Below, in pieces: positions 47,445-55,735 of a stretch of DNA of 64,000 nt. The notes under the pieces were generated by a model. The model worked only from the letters and a program-made list of their open reading frames with translations. It did no database searches and was not told the DNA's origin. A program made the position numbers and the translations under genes. This DNA comes from Onishia taeanensis. Lineage in GTDB: Bacteria; Pseudomonadota; Gammaproteobacteria; Pseudomonadales; Halomonadaceae. Position 1 is the stretch's first letter; each line of letters begins with the position of its first letter. Location of the stretch: the NCBI RefSeq assembly GCF_003268885.1, contig NZ_QLSX01000008.1, positions 124,001 to 188,000 of the forward strand, read 5' to 3'.

Positions 47445-47745
47445 TGAGCATCGGCTCCCTTATTAATGTCACGGACGCGACTCGCATTCTAGTCATCGGT
47501 GGAAACTCAATGGTGAGACCGCTCGTTTCATTGGCACATCCCCAAACGCTCATGTATTCATTTGGATATGTTCATACTGTAAGTGTTTACTTGGATTGTA
47601 ACTGGCTGCTTATGAACACGAACACCGCGGGATGCGGCTGTGCTTGCTCAGGTATACTCAGTGATGACGCATATGCTCTTGATAGGCTTTGCCTTTATAG
47701 AGTGAAGAACTTGCTTGTCTAAAGACCTAAAATTCATGAGGGAAT
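47445..47745. other. AT-rich junction after recD, no confident gene
   Basis: Composition changes abruptly at the recD stop. A possible 92-residue frame (47444-47722, start MSIGSLINVTDATRIL) overlaps the recD stop, but it has no recognised domain or clear ribosome site and I do not call it. The end of the stretch provides GAGGG for the next gene. This looks like the left boundary of an inserted segment. Confidence 0.5.
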
Positions 47746-48123
47746 ATGAAGCATATAAAAATTTGCATCATTTGTTTTTGTCTTTCATTCTCACATTTTT
47801 CAAATGCGCAGCAGTTTGAAACAGGAAATGGATTGATATCTGCTTGCAAAAAAGCAGAGGCATATATGGATGGGGAGAATGTCCAAGATTACATATCTGC
47901 TGCATGGTGTGTAGGTATCGTGCAAGGCACAAAGAATGTCTTAGCCGCAGTATCTCAGTCTATCCCAGAAAGGCAGTATGCCGTTTGCCTTCCAGATAGG
48001 GTTACTAAAGCTCAAGCAGTTCGAGTAGTTAATGATTACCTTGAAAGGAATTCGGATATTCTTCACCTTCCTCCTTCAATACTGATAACTTATGCTTTGA
48101 GAGAAGCGTATCCATGTGACTGA
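47746..48123 (+). CDS. Rap1a/Tai-like immunity protein, exported
   Basis: 125 residues. The first 21 residues form a signal peptide (ICIICFCLSFSHFSNA before QQFET). The mature part matches the Rap1a/Tai family: paired cysteines in LISACKKAEAY and AAWCVGIVQGTKNVL, then YAVCLPDRVTKAQAVRVVND, YLERNSDILHLPPS and a final YPCD. Rap1a/Tai proteins neutralise type VI secretion amidase effectors in the periplasm; many relatives are orphans. No T6SS gene is present here. The gene is AT-rich and convergent with the Gabija genes, so it was probably gained with the island. Confidence 0.7.
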   Translation: MKHIKICIICFCLSFSHFSNAQQFETGNGLISACKKAEAYMDGENVQDYISAAWCVGIVQGTKNVLAAVSQSIPERQYAVCLPDRVTKAQAVRVVNDYLERNSDILHLPPSILITYALREAYPCD

Positions 48124-48151
48124 TTTTGGGTTTTATAACATGTGGGTCTAT

Positions 48152-48181
48152 GGCCAGAGTCGCACATGGTGCACTCTGGCC
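48152..48181. terminator. Hairpin between the Rap1a-like gene and gajB
   Basis: Perfect 9-bp stem GGCCAGAGT / ACTCTGGCC with an inner GCAC-GTGC pair, located between the two converging stop codons. It may end both transcripts. Confidence 0.75.
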
Positions 48182-48187
48182 TGTCAT

Positions 48188-50020
48188 TTAAAAATCAGTA
48201 AGGAATCTAGATACCCTTCTTCTTCGTACATCTCCCCACGGCATGGTTCGACTACTTGGCCATGTTACATATAGCCATCTCTTGGACCGCGTAAATGCTA
48301 CATACATGTTGTTTTTTTCTTGCTCAATTTCTATGCCACCAGCTCTGACTGCTCGGTAATCGGGGAATGTTTCATCATCAGTGCCCAAGACAAAAACGAT
48401 GTCAAACTCTTGGCCTTTCATTGTGTGAATCGTGCTAAGGGTTATGCCAGAGTGCTGTGCAAGAGGGTGCGTTTGGCCGAGTGCCATGGAGTTTTTGAAC
48501 TGTAGAAGAGACGTGCTATTAGAGTTCTTTGCATAGTTAATCCAATGCTTTTCTAGCTCGTCTAAGTCATTAAAGAGCATAGCTTTCTCATCTTCATCCG
48601 CTAGCTCCAGATCTTCTTTTATTGCGCGAATAAGTTGCTTTAAGTTTTTTCCTTCTTCATTTAGGTTGTACGCAAGATCGATGGCTGACTTTAAATCATT
48701 CCTGTCTGTAAGCACGGCGATGTCTTCTGCCGCGTCTAGGGTTTCGTTTGTTGTACCCAAGGCATGGCTCAGCTTGGTCTTATGTAGTTTGTCCTTAGGA
48801 TTGAGGCGAACTCGTAACGCCATATCAAAAACTTTCATTGCGGAGGACTCGAATTTTACTGCGCCGGGAGTCATCTTATAATAAAAGTCTAAAGTTAAAT
48901 TTGATAGCTCATTTTCTAATGATTTGAAGAGGTATTTGTTTCTTGCAAGAATCGCTATTCTTTCAGCTGTGATGCTGCCTTCTATATCTTCGTGTTTTTT
49001 TAATTGAATAAGCTCGTGGATTTTGTTGGCGATCCAGCTTGCTTCATCAAATTCATTGTTGAAGCACTTGAGTTCGAAAATTCCTTCCTTTACTACGTTT
49101 TCGACATGCTCAGCTTCTGGAACAATCTTTTGAGCGGCCTCTAAAACCCTTTTTGATGATCGGAAGTTTTCATTTAGCTCAACTATTGCAGGCTGGTAAT
49201 CATCAACAAATAACTCGTTCATATATTTGGCCGATGAGCCGTTAAAATGAAAAATTGATTGGTTGGGATCGCCAACCAGCATAATATTATCAAAGCCGTC
49301 GTCAGCTATAACTTTCAAGACTTGATATTGCGCGTTGTTTAAGTCTTGAGCTTCATCAACACATATGGCATAGAAACTCCTTCTATACATCGAGGAAAGT
49401 TTCGGAAAATCTGTCAGGAGCTTGAATGCATAGAGAAGAATGTCATCGAAATCTAAAGCGTTTTGAGAGCGAAGAATTCCTTGGTAGCTCTTGTAGAGCA
49501 GGATTAAATTTTGGTTGTCGGTATGGTTCTCAAAGTCTTCGTCATCAATAAGGTCCCTCTTTACCTTCGAGATGAAGGAAAGAGCTTTGAATTTGAAGTC
49601 TCTTTTTTCTTTTTCGTTCTTTTCTACGTATTTCAATGCATAGGTTGGTATTTCTTCTATGGCTTGCTCTATCAGCTCCATCCTATCCGCATTATCTTCA
49701 AAAATGTGCGGCATCCCAGAAAAGCCAAGAAGATTACCATGGCTTTCTAGGATCGATTGACAAAAACCATGAAATGTACCGATAAAAGCTCTTGACTCAA
49801 TGTCATCGATTTCATTAAGGCGCTGTTTGATTTCGGCACCGGCCTTATTGGTAAAAGTCAAAGCAAGAACTTTCTTTTTTGTTTTGCTTAAGAGGTGTCT
49901 CAGCCGTTCGGTCAAAACCCTCGTTTTACCACTGCCCGCGCTAGCCTTTACGTACAGAGGGCCATTTTCTGCATATACTACTGAGTACTGCTTTTCTGAA
50001 AGCTCAATTGTTTTTTTCAT
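48188..50020 (-). CDS. gajB: Gabija helicase GajB (UvrD/Rep family)
   Basis: 610 residues. All superfamily 1A motifs are readable: VKASAGSGKTRVLTERL (Walker A, about 24-40), FIGTFHGFCQS, AICVDEAQDLNNAQYQVL, LVGDPNQSIFHFNGSSAKY, ENFRSSKRVLEAAQKI, STIHTMKGQEFDIVFVLG and NMYVAFTRSKRWLYVTW. Next to an OLD-type nuclease it makes a Gabija anti-phage system, in which GajB with GajA forms a large complex and cleaves phage DNA when nucleotide levels fall. It is longer than the approximately 490 residues of the type member. Its ATG follows the gajA stop by three bases. Codon use is AT-rich, indicating transfer. Confidence 0.88.
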   Translation of the reverse strand: MKKTIELSEKQYSVVYAENGPLYVKASAGSGKTRVLTERLRHLLSKTKKKVLALTFTNKAGAEIKQRLNEIDDIESRAFIGTFHGFCQSILESHGNLLGFSGMPHIFEDNADRMELIEQAIEEIPTYALKYVEKNEKEKRDFKFKALSFISKVKRDLIDDEDFENHTDNQNLILLYKSYQGILRSQNALDFDDILLYAFKLLTDFPKLSSMYRRSFYAICVDEAQDLNNAQYQVLKVIADDGFDNIMLVGDPNQSIFHFNGSSAKYMNELFVDDYQPAIVELNENFRSSKRVLEAAQKIVPEAEHVENVVKEGIFELKCFNNEFDEASWIANKIHELIQLKKHEDIEGSITAERIAILARNKYLFKSLENELSNLTLDFYYKMTPGAVKFESSAMKVFDMALRVRLNPKDKLHKTKLSHALGTTNETLDAAEDIAVLTDRNDLKSAIDLAYNLNEEGKNLKQLIRAIKEDLELADEDEKAMLFNDLDELEKHWINYAKNSNSTSLLQFKNSMALGQTHPLAQHSGITLSTIHTMKGQEFDIVFVLGTDDETFPDYRAVRAGGIEIEQEKNNMYVAFTRSKRWLYVTWPSSRTMPWGDVRRRRVSRFLTDF

Positions 50021-50023
50021 AGT

Positions 50024-51778
50024 TCAATGCCCCTGCTGTAGAGTCCGTTCAATCATTTCCATGAGTTCAACAACTTTTTCGGGAAGTTGTTTTTCGCTAT
50101 CCACAATCTGATAGGCTACAGCTGGTCCATAGCGAGTCTTTTCTGATGTCATTTTCTCATATAGCTCTTGCGAAGAATAGCCTTCGATTTCTTCTAGCCT
50201 TGTGGCTTCCCTCGCTTCCCTATGTTGCTCGCTGTGGTAAAAGTCAAAAGAAGCGATTGCTTTTCTTACCTCAGCTTCATATCCGCCAGCTAATATTTCT
50301 TTTTCAAAGTCGTTTCCATCTTCCACGAAAACAACGTGCTGCCCAATATCTCCCTCTTTGCCTATTTTTTTCAAGGCTTTTTGCACAGACTGCTTGGCAT
50401 CGGCTTCAGCGTCACTAAAAATCATCCAAGGGATGTTCATTCCCTCAGAAAACCTGAGAAATGGTAAGTAAGCCGTGTGACTCGAAACTGATACGAAATC
50501 TACGCCTCTTTCAATGCTCTCATATCCAAAATATTTTTTGAAAAATATTGGTAATGCTTGCTCTTCTGTCTCGCCTTCAGCAAAGACGAGGAGCTTTGAG
50601 AAAAACATCTCGCCCCGAGTGTTGATCACTTGTCTGTATATTTTTCTGGTGTCTTCATCAGTTAAGCCTTTAAGGTTTATCTTTCCGCAGTGTACCGTGT
50701 GGTCTTTATATAAGCTTCTTATATTGCTTAAGGACGAAGAGGCTGTGACATATGGTGAGTGCGTCGAGATAATTTTTTGCCCTTTTATACTGTGTATTTG
50801 TCCGAACAACTTTTTTTGGGCGTTGGGGTGTAAATGTGCTTCAGGCTCTTCGATGGCAAGGATTGGAAGGAAAACACCTGACGAAGCTTGGTAGTTTCTC
50901 TCTAGCAACTGTATAAAGGCCTTCAGAGTTAAGAGCGATGACCAGCTCCTTGTCCCCATGCCGTGATACTCCATGGAAAAGCTGTCTTGACTATCTGAGT
51001 AATATATAGTCATTCCTTTTCCCAGGTCGCGAAGCTTCTTCGTAAAGGGTGTTAGCTCGACGCCAGAACTGTCTCCATCCATAGCTGAGTTAAGCTCTTG
51101 CAAGCTGCTTTTTAACCCCTTCAATATTTCACTGTTGTCAACGGTTTTTTCATTCAGCTCTGCTATTTGATCCTCTATCTCTTGAATGCTCTCTTCAGTG
51201 TACTCTACTTTAGAAAGCATCTTACCTATGTAAGAGCTTTTTAGTCTTGTATCTTCTAGGATGTCCCTTTGAGCATCCATATAGAAGAATGGGAGCTCGT
51301 CTAGCCGAAAAGAGGTCTTTTTTCCTTTGGGTTTTTCATACCAGTACCCACTTTCATCATGGAAACTTGGCCAGTCTGGCAATATAGAATGAGTTGTTTG
51401 ATAGCTATTGCTTGCCTCATCGAGTTCGACGCATGCTCGTAACGGAACATAGCTTCTGGTCCCGTCAGTTTTAATTCTTTCTGTTCCAAATACTATCTCC
51501 CAATCTTCATCGAAGTCATCTTGTTGCTGGTCGGTATCACTTACTGGGGCTATGAGTAAGTCAATCGTTATCTTTTCGATGGTGGAGGAGTCTTTGATAT
51601 AAAAATCGTCTTGGGATATGGAAGCTCTTGCCCCGGTTGCAAGCTGTATGGCTCTAAGAAGTGATGTCTTTCCAGTGTTGTTCATCCCAGTAAGGACGGT
51701 TGTTCTTTCTAGTTCTACCTCTATATTCTCTATGCCTCGAAATCCACGTACTCGCACTGTCTTAATTAATACACTCAT
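50024..51778 (-). CDS. gajA: Gabija nuclease GajA (OLD family ATPase-TOPRIM)
   Basis: 584 residues from the ATG at 51778, which has an excellent AAGGAGG; the frame extends to 51826. The ABC-type ATPase half has Walker A VLTGMNNTGKTSLLRAIQL (about 28-46), Walker B LPILAIEEPEAHLHPNAQ and the His switch IISTHSPYVTAS. The C-terminal half is a TOPRIM nuclease: LLVFAEGETEEQALPIFF gives the catalytic Glu and MIFSDAEADAKQS the DxD-like acids. This is GajA, the DNA-nicking sensor nuclease of Gabija. It is followed by gajB. AT-rich, as are its neighbours. Confidence 0.9.
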   Translation of the reverse strand: MSVLIKTVRVRGFRGIENIEVELERTTVLTGMNNTGKTSLLRAIQLATGARASISQDDFYIKDSSTIEKITIDLLIAPVSDTDQQQDDFDEDWEIVFGTERIKTDGTRSYVPLRACVELDEASNSYQTTHSILPDWPSFHDESGYWYEKPKGKKTSFRLDELPFFYMDAQRDILEDTRLKSSYIGKMLSKVEYTEESIQEIEDQIAELNEKTVDNSEILKGLKSSLQELNSAMDGDSSGVELTPFTKKLRDLGKGMTIYYSDSQDSFSMEYHGMGTRSWSSLLTLKAFIQLLERNYQASSGVFLPILAIEEPEAHLHPNAQKKLFGQIHSIKGQKIISTHSPYVTASSSLSNIRSLYKDHTVHCGKINLKGLTDEDTRKIYRQVINTRGEMFFSKLLVFAEGETEEQALPIFFKKYFGYESIERGVDFVSVSSHTAYLPFLRFSEGMNIPWMIFSDAEADAKQSVQKALKKIGKEGDIGQHVVFVEDGNDFEKEILAGGYEAEVRKAIASFDFYHSEQHREAREATRLEEIEGYSSQELYEKMTSEKTRYGPAVAYQIVDSEKQLPEKVVELMEMIERTLQQGH

Positions 51779-52284
51779 TGCAACCTCCTTGTTCACTCCT
51801 GATGTCAGTTCAGGTATATATTTCAAAGCCAGCTTATTCTTTTAAATTTTAAAAATCTTCAGGTTGTAGTTTGAGAAATGACTTATCATGAGTTTTACGC
51901 TGGCTATGTAAGGTAGGTCAATCCTTGACGGTATGCCTACGTCGCGGCCTAGAGCGAGGCCCAGTGTAGCAAGCCTTCAGCGCCAATGGGGGGCACATAG
52001 GTCTAGCGAATGCTATCCTGTACGCTCATGTTGAGGTTGGCCTTATAGGCAAAAACCCTTTAAAAACATAATGTTATGCTATTTTTTGAATCGGCGTGAT
52101 GGACGCGTGTGCCGGGATGTGGCTGTCGGGGTCACCTCCGCGGACATGGTCGACATTGAGAGCTACGCCTGCCTATGCGCCTCAAAGTGCCGCTAGTGGT
52201 GCTACGCGGCATCTGGGACGGCAAGGTAGAGTCAATACGCCGACGACTGGACGGTGATTTTACCCAGCAATCGTAGACACCGAT
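51779..52284. other. Non-coding region upstream of gajA
   Basis: No gene is supported. Near gajA lie TATATA (about 51816) and a dyad CCTGA-N7-TCAGG (51798-51814), candidate promoter and operator for the gajA transcript. The rest turns gradually from AT-rich to GC-rich around 52080 and contains an unrecognised stretch up to the IS3 remnant. The right end (about 52250-52284) may include an IS terminal sequence (GGTGTCTACGATTGC on the minus strand). Confidence 0.5.
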
Positions 52285-52410
52285 CTAAGCGATCATTCGG
52301 GCCTCGAAGGCCTCCGGGCTGATCATCCCAATCGCACTGTGCCGACGCTGCAGGTTACAGTCCATCTCGATGTACTCAAACATCCGCGCGGCGGCTTCCG
52401 GCCATTGCTT
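52285..52410 (-). pseudogene. C-terminal remnant of an IS3-family transposase
   Basis: The translation KQWPEAAARMFEYIEMD and NLQRRHSAIGMISPEAFEAR is the C-terminal end of an IS3-family OrfB transposase (the pattern Y-I-E-x-x-N-x-x-R-R-H-S-A-x-G-x-x-S-P-E). About 40 residues remain, lacking the catalytic DDE core. The remnant starts immediately after the acetyltransferase stop. It shows that an insertion sequence took part in building this region. Confidence 0.8.
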
Positions 52411-52411
52411 T

Positions 52412-52855
52412 TCACGGCGTGCCCACCAGCTCCATATGCAGCAATGGGTAGGGCTTATCCAGCCCATCTAGCGATGAGCGGTCTCTGACGGCAAACCCCT
52501 TGTGCTGGTAGAAGCCCAGCGCCTGTGGGTTCTGTTCGTTGACGTCTACCTTGGTGGCGCCTTGGGCCGTTACCGCATCATCCAGCAGCAAGGAGCCGAT
52601 GCCTTGGCCGCGGGCCTGCGGTGCGATGAATAGCATCTCGATATTGCCGTCCTGCACGCCACAGAAGCCTAGGATTTCACCGTTCCCGCCTTTTACGCAC
52701 GTCAAATCGATCGCGCCGAAATACTGCTCGTAAATAAGCGGCTTCAGCTCCAGGAGGTCCTGTTCGCGCAAGAAATCATGGGTTGCTCTGACCGATGCCT
52801 CCCAGACATCCAGCAGCTCACGATAGTCGGCTTTCCCTACGCTTTCGACGTTCAT
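52412..52855 (-). CDS. GNAT family acetyltransferase, YjaB-like
   Basis: 147 residues from the ATG at 52855, with AAGGGA upstream; an open frame runs to 53002. Matches to YjaB run through the whole chain: LLDVWEASVRATHDFLREQD, MLFIAPQARGQGIGSLLLDD with the acetyl-CoA loop, VDVNEQNPQALGFYQHKGF, and RSSLDGLDKPYPLLHMEL. YjaB proteins acetylate unknown small molecules or proteins. It sits between the IS3 remnant and the ATPase-nuclease pair, separated from the latter by about 200 bases. Confidence 0.85.
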   Translation of the reverse strand: MNVESVGKADYRELLDVWEASVRATHDFLREQDLLELKPLIYEQYFGAIDLTCVKGGNGEILGFCGVQDGNIEMLFIAPQARGQGIGSLLLDDAVTAQGATKVDVNEQNPQALGFYQHKGFAVRDRSSLDGLDKPYPLLHMELVGTP

Positions 52856-53053
52856 CAAACATTCCCTTGTTGCTTCTTGTACCGCTACCGCGCCGATAAA
52901 AGACGCCATGCCGCCCGCCGCTGTCAAACGATGAACGCGCTGGGGCGCAGCCAAGGTGGCGTTCAACCAGGTCGACGACTGGATGGTGTACCTGCACGTC
53001 ATCGACTAAACGCTGGCCGCCGCGGTGGATCGACTCGGCGAGATGCTCGCCGT

Positions 53054-53551
53054 TCAGAGATAATCTCGTATCTCCGGGATCGGCGAACTGGCCTCGCAGT
53101 GGATGACGGCCATCACTCGGATGCCGTGGTGGTTCTCCAGCCGTTCCTGTTCCGGCTTGGGCAGCAGGCCATTGGTTACCACCACGGCTTTTTCCTCTAC
53201 CCGCCCGCGGGCTTCCTCTTCCAGACAAGCCACCAGCTGCCGATATTCCGCCCGATGACGCTTCACATAGGCCAACTGCTCGAAGGCATGCGGAATATCA
53301 CCGGCTCCCTTGAGTTCGACGAGCACGGCGGCATGGCGTTGATTGCCCTGCCAGAGGAAGAGGCCATCGCACTTCGGTTGGTTGTCACGCAACACGCAGC
53401 CATCCAGCACGATAGCGACGCCCCGCTCTCCTGTCTTGGGGGTCAGACGAACCTGCTTGCCCTGCTCACCGAGCGTGTACTCCCCGAGGCAATGCGCCTG
53501 TGTGTTGCCCATCTTGCGGCACACGCAGTGCTGATACTCGCCCAGGTTCAT
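53054..53551 (-). CDS. Small protein with PD-(D/E)XK nuclease-like motif, partner of the ATPase
   Basis: 165 residues from the ATG at 53551, which overlaps the ATPase stop (ATGA). I do not recognise a named family. The central strand-helix pattern has Asp62 (KCDGLFLW), then Glu79-Leu-Lys81 (AVLVELKGAG), followed by a helix with AFEQLAYVKRHRAEYRQL. This D-x(16)-E-x-K arrangement with a trailing Q-L helix is the signature of PD-(D/E)XK nucleases. The N-terminus has three cysteines (HCVCRKMG, AHCLG) that might bind zinc. Coupling to the ATPase suggests that the two work as one system, perhaps phage defence. The nuclease role is inferred from the motif. Confidence 0.7.
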   Translation of the reverse strand: MNLGEYQHCVCRKMGNTQAHCLGEYTLGEQGKQVRLTPKTGERGVAIVLDGCVLRDNQPKCDGLFLWQGNQRHAAVLVELKGAGDIPHAFEQLAYVKRHRAEYRQLVACLEEEARGRVEEKAVVVTNGLLPKPEQERLENHHGIRVMAVIHCEASSPIPEIRDYL

Positions 53552-54768
53552 GCCTCGCGATGCTCCCACTCGATATCCCGCATCTCGTCATAGAGACGAT
53601 TGATGGCATTGAAGTGGCCGAGCAGCTTGTCATCGAGCAGGCCCAGATCGGCATCCATCAGCGACTGAGCCTCGTCCGGCGTCACGTGATAGGCGGCCAC
53701 CTCTTCCGGCGAAAGCGGCAGCAGTGATCGGATGGGCTCGCTGGCGATCTCGAGGCCGTCGATTTGGCTGCGCTTGAGGTGATTGTTGAGCGCCTCGACG
53801 ATAAAGGGGCTATGCGTGGTGACGATGAACTGGGTATTGGAGAAGGTGGCCAGCAGGTCTCCCAGCACTCGCCGCTGCCACTCGGGATGCAAGTGCAGAT
53901 CGACTTCGTCGATCATCACCACCGCTTCAGCTGCCAGCGGATCGTCCAGCTGCGGATTGGCCATGGCCATTCGTGAACTGAGATCTATGACCAAACCCAA
54001 CAGGGTCTGATAGCCATCGCTGAGCTGGGCGATGTCAAGCCACTCGCCTTCCTGCTTCACCGCGAAACGCAGTGGATTGAGCTCGACATGCGGCTCGGAT
54101 AGGTCCGGAAACAACCGTGTGATGGCACGGCGGACGGCGTCCAGCTCGGGAAGTGTCACATCGAAGCTTTTGTGCTGCTTCTGCAGGCGATGCTCCTCGT
54201 TTTCCTTGTTGTAGAACCAGACGAAGGCCGACTTGAAGCGCGTATCGGCGTTCAGCGCATTGGCCAGGGCATCGAAGCGTTCATGTGACTTGGGAAATCC
54301 TTTGCGACTCCGGGGCAAATCCAGCAAAGCGCGGCTGACGCCATAATAGGCAAACACCGGCAGTTCGAAGGATTCACCGGCCGACCAGGGCTCGATCACG
54401 GAAGTGTCCAGATGCTGCTTGAGCGCCTTCACGCCTTGTCCCGGGGGAATCTCGCCGGTCGTCTTCTTGCTGTTGTCGCGCCGCTGCAGGCGGTCCCAGC
54501 CCAGCCCCTGCGGGGTTTCCAGGCTAATCCGCGTGTAGGGAGCCAGGCGGTTATCCCGCTGATGTATCTCACCGCGTTTCTTGAAGGTCATGCCCGACAC
54601 ACCCGGCAGATAGGTGAGGATTTCACCGAGCCCGATGGCGATACCATCCAGCAGCGTGGTCTTGCCGCTGCCATTCGCGCCCATCAGCAGGGTCAGACGC
54701 GGCCCAAATGTCATCGACAGAGAGGGCTTAGCACGAAAGTTTTCCAGTGTCAGGCACTTGAGCTTCAT
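53548..54768 (-). CDS. COG3950-like AAA/ABC-type ATPase, putative defence
   Basis: 406 residues. Walker A is LLMGANGSGKTTLLDGIAI (about 28-46), the signature-like region is IAQLSDGYQTLLGLVIDLSS, Walker B is VVMIDEVDLHLHPEWQRRV, and the His switch is FIVTTHSPFIVEALNN. The MKLKCLTLENFRAKPSLSM opening and overall form match the ABC-like ATPases grouped as COG3950, relatives of PtuA and retron ATPases. A C-terminal region (from about 340) has a helical LxPEEVAAYHVTPDEAQSLM segment. It is upstream of, and overlaps, the putative nuclease gene. COG3950-type ATPases are common in defence islands. Composition is close to that of the host. Confidence 0.85.
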   Translation of the reverse strand: MKLKCLTLENFRAKPSLSMTFGPRLTLLMGANGSGKTTLLDGIAIGLGEILTYLPGVSGMTFKKRGEIHQRDNRLAPYTRISLETPQGLGWDRLQRRDNSKKTTGEIPPGQGVKALKQHLDTSVIEPWSAGESFELPVFAYYGVSRALLDLPRSRKGFPKSHERFDALANALNADTRFKSAFVWFYNKENEEHRLQKQHKSFDVTLPELDAVRRAITRLFPDLSEPHVELNPLRFAVKQEGEWLDIAQLSDGYQTLLGLVIDLSSRMAMANPQLDDPLAAEAVVMIDEVDLHLHPEWQRRVLGDLLATFSNTQFIVTTHSPFIVEALNNHLKRSQIDGLEIASEPIRSLLPLSPEEVAAYHVTPDEAQSLMDADLGLLDDKLLGHFNAINRLYDEMRDIEWEHREA

Positions 54769-54865
54769 TCAGAGGCATTCCGCCGGCGAGGATTAGGCAT
54801 GGAAGTCTGGCATGTTTGCGAAGGACGGTCGACTGATTGCCCGGTGGGCCACCCGAATCGCAGGA

Positions 54866-55735
54866 TCAGGTACATGTCTCCCCCAGAAACTCACCGGCGA
54901 ACGCCTGGAACACAGGTGTCTCGTAGCCGCGGCGCCACAGCAGACGCGTGGTGACGGTGCCCATCTCCAGCGTGTTCAGATCGTTCGACACGCCGCTTAC
55001 ATCCAAGACGCTGCGAGGCAGCAGGGTGACGCAGGCGCCCGCGGCCACGGCCGCCACCATGGCATGGTAGGAACCCAGCTCCTGGATGCGCCACGCGCTC
55101 CCGGCAACGATGCCGAGCCGTTGCTCCGCCATGGCCCGGTAGGTGCAGCCAGGCTTGAAGGCCGCCAGGGTGCGGGTGCGCAATTCTGCAGGCGCGGTGG
55201 CCCCGGCATCGGCGGGCGGCAACAGCAGCAACAGCGATTCCTTCCATACCGGCGCGCTTTGCAGCCCCATCTCGATCAGGGCTGGCTCGTTCTCGAGCTC
55301 GGCGGGCAAGGCCACGAAGGCGCAGTCCAGCCGCCCGTCGCGCACCTCTTCCACCAGCGGGCCGGAGGGGCCGGTGCTGACCTCGAGCCGGGTCGCCGGA
55401 TGGGTGCGGTTGAAGGCTGCCAGCGGTGCAGGCAGCCGGCTGGCGGCCGTGCTTTCCATGCTGCCGATGCGCAGGCTGCCGCTGCCGCCCAGGGCCTGCC
55501 GGGCCTCGTCCTCCAGCGCCAGCAGGCGCTGCGCGTAGGTCAGGAAGCGCTGGCCCGCCGTCGAGAGCGTGATGCGCTTACCGAGGCGAATGAACAGTTC
55601 CGCGTCCAGCTCCGCTTCCAATTGCTGGATGCGCGTCGTGACGTTGGAAGGGGCACGCCCGAGCCGCGCGGCGGCCCGCGTCACGCTAAGTTCGGCGGCG
55701 ACGGCCTCGAAGATTTTCAGGGTTTCCAGGTCCAC
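54866..55735 (-). CDS. LysR-type regulator divergent from nitronate monooxygenase
   Basis: 289 residues from a GTG at 55735 (AAGG upstream). The winged helix is in residues 1-60 (LETLKIFEAVAAELSVTRAA and PSNVTTRIQQLEAELDAEL). The effector domain starts near 87 (LRIGSMESTAASRLPAPLAA) and has the YRAMAEQRLGIVAG segment. The divergent gene is a nitronate monooxygenase, and a perfect palindrome separates them, so it likely regulates that gene. The inducer is unknown. Confidence 0.87.
   Translation of the reverse strand: MDLETLKIFEAVAAELSVTRAAARLGRAPSNVTTRIQQLEAELDAELFIRLGKRITLSTAGQRFLTYAQRLLALEDEARQALGGSGSLRIGSMESTAASRLPAPLAAFNRTHPATRLEVSTGPSGPLVEEVRDGRLDCAFVALPAELENEPALIEMGLQSAPVWKESLLLLLPPADAGATAPAELRTRTLAAFKPGCTYRAMAEQRLGIVAGSAWRIQELGSYHAMVAAVAAGACVTLLPRSVLDVSGVSNDLNTLEMGTVTTRLLWRRGYETPVFQAFAGEFLGETCT

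What the first reader, a model, noticed from the sequence alone, without database searches (positions are those of the whole stretch)
53054..54768. ATPase plus PD-(D/E)XK-motif protein: candidate undescribed two-gene defence system
A COG3950-like ATPase gene overlaps (ATGA) a 165-residue gene whose translation has Asp62, Glu79 and Lys81 in the D-x(16)-E-x-K layout followed by a Q-L helix. ATPase-nuclease pairs underlie several known systems (Septu, Gabija, PARIS), but Septu uses an HNH nuclease, and I do not recognise this small protein as a partner in a named system. Position in a defence-rich segment and translational coupling strengthen the idea of joint function. Seen: overlap and motifs. 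Inferred: nuclease and defence roles.
Basis: partly seen in the sequence, partly recalled or inferred. Interest (0 to 1): 0.75.

Follow-up and report, generated by a model that had tools for sequence, protein, structure and literature searches.

The report
Septu-type ATPase with different nuclease partner
Two overlapping genes in a salt-loving bacterium look like an anti-phage system in which a Septu-type ATPase works with a small restriction-enzyme-like nuclease instead of Septu's usual HNH nuclease; the pair recurs in distantly related bacteria, and I found no laboratory test of it.

Summary
A 406-aa ATPase gene and a 165-aa gene overlap by ATGA on the minus strand. The ATPase core is PtuA-type (Septu/retron I-A). 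The small protein itself matches no Pfam, PADLOC or NCBIfam family at E <= 1. Its best AlphaFold model is confident and has a PD-(D/E)XK strand/helix order; the top solved-structure hits are FokI, PaqCI and N.BspD6I, with modest scores. E79, K81 and Q92 are conserved in 15 of 15 sequences, D62 in 14 (E in one).

The pair recurs as a unit: 18 distinct close pairs (Halomonadaceae, Chlorobiaceae, Desulfobulbus) and 3 distant ones with another ATPase head. Two of the three distant small proteins match PADLOC's unnamed candidate PDC-M29B. Of 15 PtuA-type ATPases sampled elsewhere, 14 have an HNH-like partner and 1 another protein. None has this ATPase's C-terminal tail, which does resemble the tails of the 3 distant pairs' ATPases.

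Three close relatives, one of the same species, lack the pair at an otherwise matching site.

Best reading: a Septu-like ATPase-nuclease system whose effector is a PD-(D/E)XK nuclease related to PDC-M29B. It is a new variant of a known kind; defence activity and substrate are untested here.

The parts
53548..54768 (-). PtuA-type ABC-class ATPase, 406 aa (P0002)
   Evidence: PADLOC PtuA E 1.1e-92; Pfam AAA_21 9.3e-25; profile search of PDB sequences finds chains named PtuA
53770..54768 (-). ATPase core, residues 1-333, like PtuA of HNH-partnered systems
   Evidence: core HMM scores 118-225 bits on 7 of 7 plasmid PtuA-type ATPases tested (7 of 25 records found), 16-34 bits on the 3 distant-pair ATPases
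53548..53769 (-). ATPase C-terminal tail, residues 334-406, associated with this partner type
   Evidence: tail HMM matches 3 of 3 distant-pair ATPases (iE 2e-6, 2.8e-6, 0.022) and none of 7 + 8 other PtuA-type ATPases (iE >= 0.7 or not listed)
54658..54681 (-). Walker A, GANGSGKT (residues 30-37)
   Evidence: sequence; G30, N32, G33, G35, K36, T37 invariant in 14 ATPases
53905..53922 (-). Walker B, VVMIDE (residues 283-288)
   Evidence: sequence; residues 284-288 invariant in 14 ATPases
53054..53551 (-). small PD-(D/E)XK-fold protein, 165 aa (P0001), predicted nuclease effector
   Evidence: AlphaFold2 best model pLDDT 90.5; Foldseek PDB ranks 1-5 FokI, PaqCI, N.BspD6I; conserved residues
53548..53551 (-). 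ATGA stop/start overlap of the two genes
   Evidence: sequence; same -4 overlap in 13 of 18 close pairs (14 if the frameshifted L043 is counted) and 3 of 3 distant pairs
53366..53368 (-). D62 codon (putative catalytic Asp, just before strand 63-68)
   Evidence: D in 14 of 15, E in L048; invariant in the 5-sequence distant set
53309..53317 (-). E79-L80-K81 codons (putative E-x-K at the end of strand 73-80)
   Evidence: 15 of 15; invariant in the distant set
53276..53278 (-). Q92 codon in helix 83-99
   Evidence: 15 of 15; invariant in the distant set
52954..54872 (.). segment (approximate ends) absent from three close relatives, one of the same species: accessory insert carrying the pair
   Evidence: blastn of the window against L054, L055, L056: GNAT and LysR regions adjoin
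48188..51826 (-). neighbouring Gabija system (gajA 50024-51826, gajB 48188-50020), context only
   Evidence: PADLOC GajA 6.8e-206, GajB 2.6e-228

Best explanation
The pair is a two-gene anti-phage system built like Septu: a PtuA-type ABC-class ATPase holds and switches a small nuclease. Here the nuclease is a PD-(D/E)XK enzyme related to PDC-M29B instead of the HNH protein PtuB. Probable working: ATPase oligomers carry the nuclease docked on a dedicated C-terminal tail. A phage-induced change in nucleotide or nucleic-acid state alters the ATPase and releases the nuclease's activity. D62/E79/K81 then cut nucleic acid with a divalent metal, stopping phage replication, possibly at the cost of the cell. 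Shown by computation: gene arrangement, ATPase family, predicted nuclease fold, conserved active-site residues, recurrence as a unit, accessory location. Inferred: complex formation, docking by the tail, nuclease activity, substrate (DNA or tRNA), trigger, and the defence role.
For: ATPase matches PtuA profiles to residue ~330 and PDB chains named PtuA. Small protein: best AlphaFold model pLDDT 90.5 with order H, E43-48, E63-68, E73-80, H83-99, E118-126; PDB Foldseek ranks 1-5 are FokI, PaqCI and N.BspD6I. Recurrence: 13 of 250 genomes of the family, the window's own included and one of the distant type; genome-contig scan 15 loci in Halomonadaceae, Chlorobiaceae and Desulfobulbus, 15 of 15 with the ATPase just upstream, one of them (L043) in pieces. 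Mirror-tree r 0.97 over 91 comparisons of 14 of the 18 close pairs. Accessory: absent in same-species G793 and in G774 and G803 at an otherwise matching site. Defence context: Gabija beside it; the adjacent slot holds TIR genes or an OLD-like gene in other genomes.
Against: I found no wet-lab result for this pair or for PDC-M29 (open-licence papers only). Foldseek support is modest: best E 4.5e-3, none <= 1e-3, TM-scores by query length 0.24-0.40 for the first ten. The five AlphaFold models ranged from pLDDT 90.5 down to 54.8. The weak Pfam touches of the family include nuclease models (HSDR_N in 2 of 15, best 0.0095; Mrr_cat in 1, 0.13) but also six other models at 0.037-0.13. No match of the small protein's profile to any PDB sequence at E <= 10. 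In several other hosts the flanking genes look metabolic by eye, so the defence-island argument is local. No relative found in the viral, phage or plasmid collections. The ATPase model was too poor to use, so docking by the tail is untested.
Confidence: 0.7

Rival explanations
1. It is an ordinary Septu system whose PtuB has merely diverged beyond recognition.
For: The ATPase core is PtuA-type; PtuA-type ATPase genes elsewhere are followed by an HNH-type gene with a similar short overlap.
Against: The partner's predicted fold and residues are PD-(D/E)XK, not HNH. Fourteen of 15 sampled PtuA-type ATPases keep a recognisable HNH-like partner of about 205-250 aa or a fused one (annotated for 4, by eye for 10). 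The family is homologous to PDC-M29B-like proteins (97.5% probability).
Confidence: 0.05
2. It is a member of the PADLOC candidate system PDC-M29 and nothing more: the same system with a drifted ATPase.
For: P0003 matches PDC-M29B at 5.4e-13 and the ATPases of the distant pairs match PDC-M29A; profile-profile link A3-A5 97.5%; ATPase tails related.
Against: P0001 itself has no PDC-M29B match at E <= 1 and 1 of 15 family members only 0.057. The ATPase core profile scores far higher on PtuA-type ATPases than on the M29-type ones. The isolated tails tested (5) have no PADLOC match.
Confidence: 0.15
3. The pair is a toxin-antitoxin or housekeeping DNA-repair module rather than phage defence.
For: ATPase-nuclease pairs also act in repair (general knowledge); flanks in several hosts look metabolic by eye.
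Against: Patchy: 13 of 250 genomes of the family and absent in a same-species genome; PtuA-type ATPase; next to a variable slot with defence genes.
Confidence: 0.12
4. The small protein is a catalytically dead PD-(D/E)XK fold used only for binding.
For: L048 carries E in place of D62.
Against: E79, K81 and Q92 are 15 of 15 and D62 14 of 15, and all four are kept in the distant set.
Confidence: 0.08

Closest known systems
Septu type I (PtuA-PtuB) and retron I-A effectors
   Same: PtuA-type ATPase core; ATPase gene followed by a short-overlap nuclease gene.
   Different: Partner is predicted PD-(D/E)XK, not HNH; the ATPase C-terminal tail is not the one of the 14 HNH-partnered PtuA-type ATPases tested; no reverse transcriptase gene was seen by eye among the adjacent ORFs, and none was searched for.
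PADLOC phage-defence candidate PDC-M29 (A+B)
   Same: Small partner is a distant homologue; two-gene ATGA-coupled layout in the three distant pairs; related ATPase tail.
   Different: ATPase core is PtuA-type, whereas the distant pairs' ATPases match AriA and PDC-M29A best. No paper holding 'PDC-M29' was found in the open library.
ptuXYZ (PtuA-like ATPase with DUF262 and PIN-YoeB proteins), PMC11980606, passages read
   Same: A PtuA-like ATPase combined with an effector other than PtuB.
   Different: Three genes and a BECR-fold protein; here two genes and a PD-(D/E)XK protein.
PARIS (AriA-AriB) and Gabija (GajA-GajB)
   Same: ABC-class ATPase coupled to a nuclease function; an AriA profile also matches P0002, far more weakly than PtuA (4.1e-27 against 1.1e-92).
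   Different: Their nucleases are Toprim: AriB by the start of the abstract of PMC12409363 (listing), GajA by its Pfam Toprim domain. P0001 has no PADLOC match at E <= 1.

Membership tests
PD-(D/E)XK nuclease superfamily | alpha-beta-beta-beta-alpha-beta core with D near strand 2 and (D/E)-x-K on strand 3 | tested here: met
   secondary-structure order and residue positions in the pLDDT 90.5 model; Foldseek top ranks are restriction/nicking nucleases, with modest E-values and TM-scores by query length of 0.33-0.40 for ranks 1-5. Superfamily definition recalled.
PD-(D/E)XK nuclease superfamily | metal-dependent nuclease activity | not testable with these tools
   needs biochemistry
Septu | PtuA ATPase | tested here: met
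   PADLOC PtuA 1.1e-92 over residues 1-326 of 406; the C-terminal ~75 residues fall outside the match; NCBIfam PtuA (retron Ec78) matches below its cut-off, 213.8 of 500 bits
Septu | PtuB HNH nuclease as second gene | tested here: not met
   no PADLOC, Pfam or NCBIfam match; predicted fold is PD-(D/E)XK
PDC-M29 | PDC-M29B match of the small protein | tested here: inconclusive
   P0001 none at E<=1; 1 of 15 close-family members 0.057; distant relatives P0003 5.4e-13, L008 0.0017, L007 none; profile-profile 97.5%
PDC-M29 | PDC-M29A ATPase | tested here: inconclusive
   only the best 25 of 182 PADLOC matches of P0002 were shown, mostly PtuA; whether PDC-M29A is among the rest was not seen; tail alone has no match
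PARIS | AriB Toprim nuclease as partner | tested here: not met
   P0001 has no PADLOC or Pfam match at E <= 1 and its predicted fold is PD-(D/E)XK-like
PD-T4-4 | second protein of PD-T4-4 | tested here: inconclusive
   no PADLOC match of P0001 and no PD-T4-4 match among those of three distant relatives, but I did not see whether PADLOC holds a model of that second protein; PD-T4-4_A does match the distant pairs' ATPases including their C-terminal part
Anti-phage defence system (any) | protection against phage | not testable with these tools
   needs plaque assays

The most novel reading that the evidence does not exclude
ABC-ATPase defence systems exchange their killing enzyme as a cassette. 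Here a Septu-type ATPase head has been joined to the C-terminal docking tail and PD-(D/E)XK nuclease of a different (PDC-M29-like) system, so the tail is the address label that decides which nuclease an ATPase head controls, and defence systems with new effectors could be predicted from the tail alone.
Probability: 0.4. Interest if true: 0.75.

Novelty: new variant of a known kind. Interest (0 to 1): 0.6.

Why it matters
Septu type I is among the most widespread systems in the PADLOC survey (PMC8565338, passages), and the reported target differs between PtuAB members: DNA for one Septu, tRNA-Tyr for retron-Eco7 and Septu EcB88 (PMC11555353 and PMC13096335, passages and start of abstract). A natural pair that keeps the ATPase but replaces the HNH nuclease by a PD-(D/E)XK enzyme separates sensing from killing. 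It makes directly testable which part of the ATPase picks the effector and whether the trigger stays the same when the effector changes. PADLOC-DB 2.0.0 of 2023 sees the ATPase as PtuA but not the partner, so by my inference such pairs would be scored as incomplete Septu or missed; other tools were not tried.

Tried and rejected
Motif as evidence on its own: rejected, too frequent by chance.

Relatives in viral, phage and plasmid collections: none for P0001; none for A2, P0003 or the L007 protein in viral contigs; none for P0003 or the L008 protein in plasmids.

L005 (G360), one of the 4 hits of 390, was set aside: the matched frame lies over an opposite-strand peptidase-like ORF and no ATPase is seen by eye. 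L020 (G1214, E 5.2e-4, 525-aa frame) was not examined.

PDC-M29B profile over 274 gammaproteobacterial genomes: 1 match of 274, and 0 of 14 control genomes, so it gave no larger set. The tail alignment A6 over 274 genomes found only our own copy at E <= 1e-4. (That the class is Gammaproteobacteria is recalled from the Halomonadaceae names.)

ATPase structure prediction: mean pLDDT 47.4, discarded. BFVD fold search: none at E <= 0.001. PHROGs: weak hits only, best 0.018.

A first script on the eight control ATPases read five loci on the wrong strand; it was redone with orientation fixed, and only one search is used for them.

Of 25 plasmid records with a PtuA-type match I fetched 7.

Literature: 8 of 10 searches were answered. 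No title, abstract start or passage that I saw describes a PtuA-type ATPase with a PD-(D/E)XK partner; I read passages of seven papers and no paper whole. The library holds open-licence papers only. Li et al. 2024 on PtuA-PtuB is not held.

Full report
WHAT IS THERE. The two genes lie on the minus strand of the window. The ATPase is 54768->53548 (406 aa) and the small gene 53551->53054 (165 aa), overlapping by ATGA. Upstream is a LysR-type gene (54866-55735); downstream is a GNAT gene (scanned as 52412-52852) and then Gabija gajA/gajB (51826-48188). The D-x16-E-x-K motif is real but weak alone (457 of 20,000 shuffles).

THE ATPASE. PADLOC PtuA models match residues 1 to about 330 (best 1.1e-92); Pfam gives AAA_21; a profile of 14 sequences finds PDB chains named PtuA, several labelled retron I-A (that 8ee4 is the Septu PtuA is recalled). 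Walker A and B are conserved. NCBIfam's retron Ec78 PtuA matches below its cut-off (213.8 of 500 bits).

THE SMALL PROTEIN. P0001 has no match at E <= 1 in Pfam, PADLOC or NCBIfam. With an alignment of 15 sequences AlphaFold2 gave a best model of mean pLDDT 90.5; the other four models scored 81.2 down to 54.8. The order is H4-9, E43-48, E63-68, E73-80, H83-99, H101-114, E118-126 (main elements), which places D62 just before one strand, E79/K81 at the end of the next and Q92 in the following helix: the PD-(D/E)XK layout (definition recalled). Foldseek against the PDB ranks FokI (E 4.5e-3, probability 0.99, TM 0.39 by query length), PaqCI and N.BspD6I first, with Card1, BamHI and HamAB further down among unrelated folds; none reaches E 1e-3. 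From memory, FokI's catalytic residues have the same spacing. Across the family, 2 of 15 members touch HSDR_N (best 0.0095) and 1 touches Mrr_cat (0.13), but other Pfam models appear at similar weak levels (0.037-0.13).

RECURRENCE. In the window's own family 13 of 250 genomes have a relative, the window's own included. A scan of the 84,980-species genome collection with two peptide patterns matched 60 stretches; 15 encode relatives, in Halomonadaceae (11), two Chlorobaculum, an uncultured Chlorobiaceae bacterium and a Desulfobulbus. Several of these are metagenome bins, and the Desulfobulbus contig is only 4.8 kb. All 15 have the ATPase directly upstream, as do the 15 loci read (window, 11 close, 3 distant). 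The four-base overlap is kept in 13 of the 18 (14 if L043 is counted) and 3 of 3. In L043 the ATPase is frameshifted, and in L049 both genes are shortened. ATPase and partner distances correlate at r = 0.97 over 91 comparisons of 14 of the 18 pairs. That these hosts belong to three phyla is recalled taxonomy.

THE DISTANT PAIRS. L006/L032 (141 aa), L007/L033 (151 aa) and L008/L034 (154 aa) encode small proteins with the same invariant residues behind ATPases that match AriA and PDC-M29A best rather than PtuA. Two of the three small proteins match PDC-M29B (5.4e-13, 0.0017); one does not. Profile-profile comparison links them to our family over 77 columns at 97.5% probability. These loci were found by similarity, so their relatedness is partly by selection; the link was seen in both search directions.

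THE TAIL. The ATPase core (1-333) scores 118-225 bits on 7 plasmid-borne PtuA-type ATPases (7 fetched of 25 records), whose next gene or fused domain is HNH-like in 7 of 7 (annotated for 4; by eye for L057, L061, L062), and only 16-34 bits on the distant pairs' ATPases. The tail (334-406) behaves oppositely: 3 of 3 distant-pair ATPases match (iE 2e-6, 2.8e-6, 0.022), 0 of 7 HNH-partnered ones do (iE >= 0.8 or not listed). A second control took all 8 other matches that P0002 found at E <= 1e-20 in 274 genomes of the class: 7 are followed by an HNH-like gene (read by eye), 1 (L072) by an unrelated 130-aa protein, and 0 of 8 have the tail (iE >= 0.7 or not listed). In these samples the tail goes with the partner. 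Two readings fit: exchange of tail plus nuclease between heads, or an old shared tail lost in HNH-partnered PtuA. The similarity is short, with 2 invariant columns in A6, and the five tails tested alone have no PADLOC match. PD-T4-4_A also matches the distant ATPases in this region, so the tail may not be exclusive to this partner.

LOCATION. In a same-species genome (G793) and two same-genus genomes (G774, G803) the GNAT and LysR regions adjoin with no pair between them; a roughly 1.9-kb segment (about 52954-54872) is missing. The two other same-genus genomes in that search were uninformative. The neighbouring slot between recD and GNAT holds Gabija in the window; TIR genes (one scanned, one by eye) and an nSTAND gene in G793; an OLD-like gene in G873; and in G785 a 976-aa gene with sub-threshold PHP and SMC_N matches. 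In G774 and G803 the proteins scanned (one each) gave only sub-threshold or no Pfam match. This supports an accessory, defence-linked locus. In several other hosts the pair lies among genes that look metabolic by eye.

MECHANISM. By analogy with Septu, where ATPase and HNH residues are both needed for defence (PMC13096335, passages) and PtuA hexamers recruit two PtuB (table in PMC12198126, passages), I propose that the ATPase carries the nuclease and gates it. The substrate cannot be predicted: PtuAB variants are reported to target tRNA-Tyr or DNA (PMC11555353, passages). Precedent for PtuA-like ATPases with other effectors exists (ptuXYZ, PMC11980606, passages).

VERDICT. This is a new variant of the Septu-like ATPase-nuclease kind, not a new kind. 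Three things keep it interesting: the effector change with a conserved head, the partner-tracking tail, and recurrence in distantly related hosts.

Noticed in passing
window 48188-51826: A Gabija system (GajA and GajB by PADLOC) lies beside the pair on the same strand.
   Followed up: partly
window 47465-52411; L054, L055, L056, L021, L023: The slot between recD and the GNAT gene is a variable hotspot: Gabija, TIR genes with an nSTAND gene, a gene with weak PHP/SMC matches, or an OLD-like gene in different genomes; other contents unknown.
   Followed up: partly
window 53054-53551: Cysteines C9, C52 and C61 of the small protein are invariant even in the distant set (C11 and C21 also in the 15-sequence close family), C61 sitting next to the putative catalytic D62: a possible zinc or iron-sulphur site.
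   Followed up: no
L072 2766-3158: A PtuA-type ATPase (423 aa) is followed by a 130-aa protein with no Pfam match that is not HNH-like by eye: perhaps yet another effector on a PtuA-type head.
   Followed up: partly
L048 5995-6507: The Chlorobaculum thiosulfatiphilum copy has E in place of the otherwise conserved D62.
   Followed up: no
L043, L049: The Halomonas olivaria record has a frameshifted ATPase with an open partner gene; the Desulfobulbus copy has both genes shortened.
   Followed up: no
window 52285-52467: A 60-aa frame resembles the end of an IS3-type transposase (by eye), suggesting past insertion-sequence activity near the slot.
   Followed up: no
L032 10310-14321; L047 1149-4265: By eye, type I restriction-modification genes lie beside one distant pair, and a large DUF4062-like protein gene lies upstream of one Chlorobaculum pair.
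   Followed up: no
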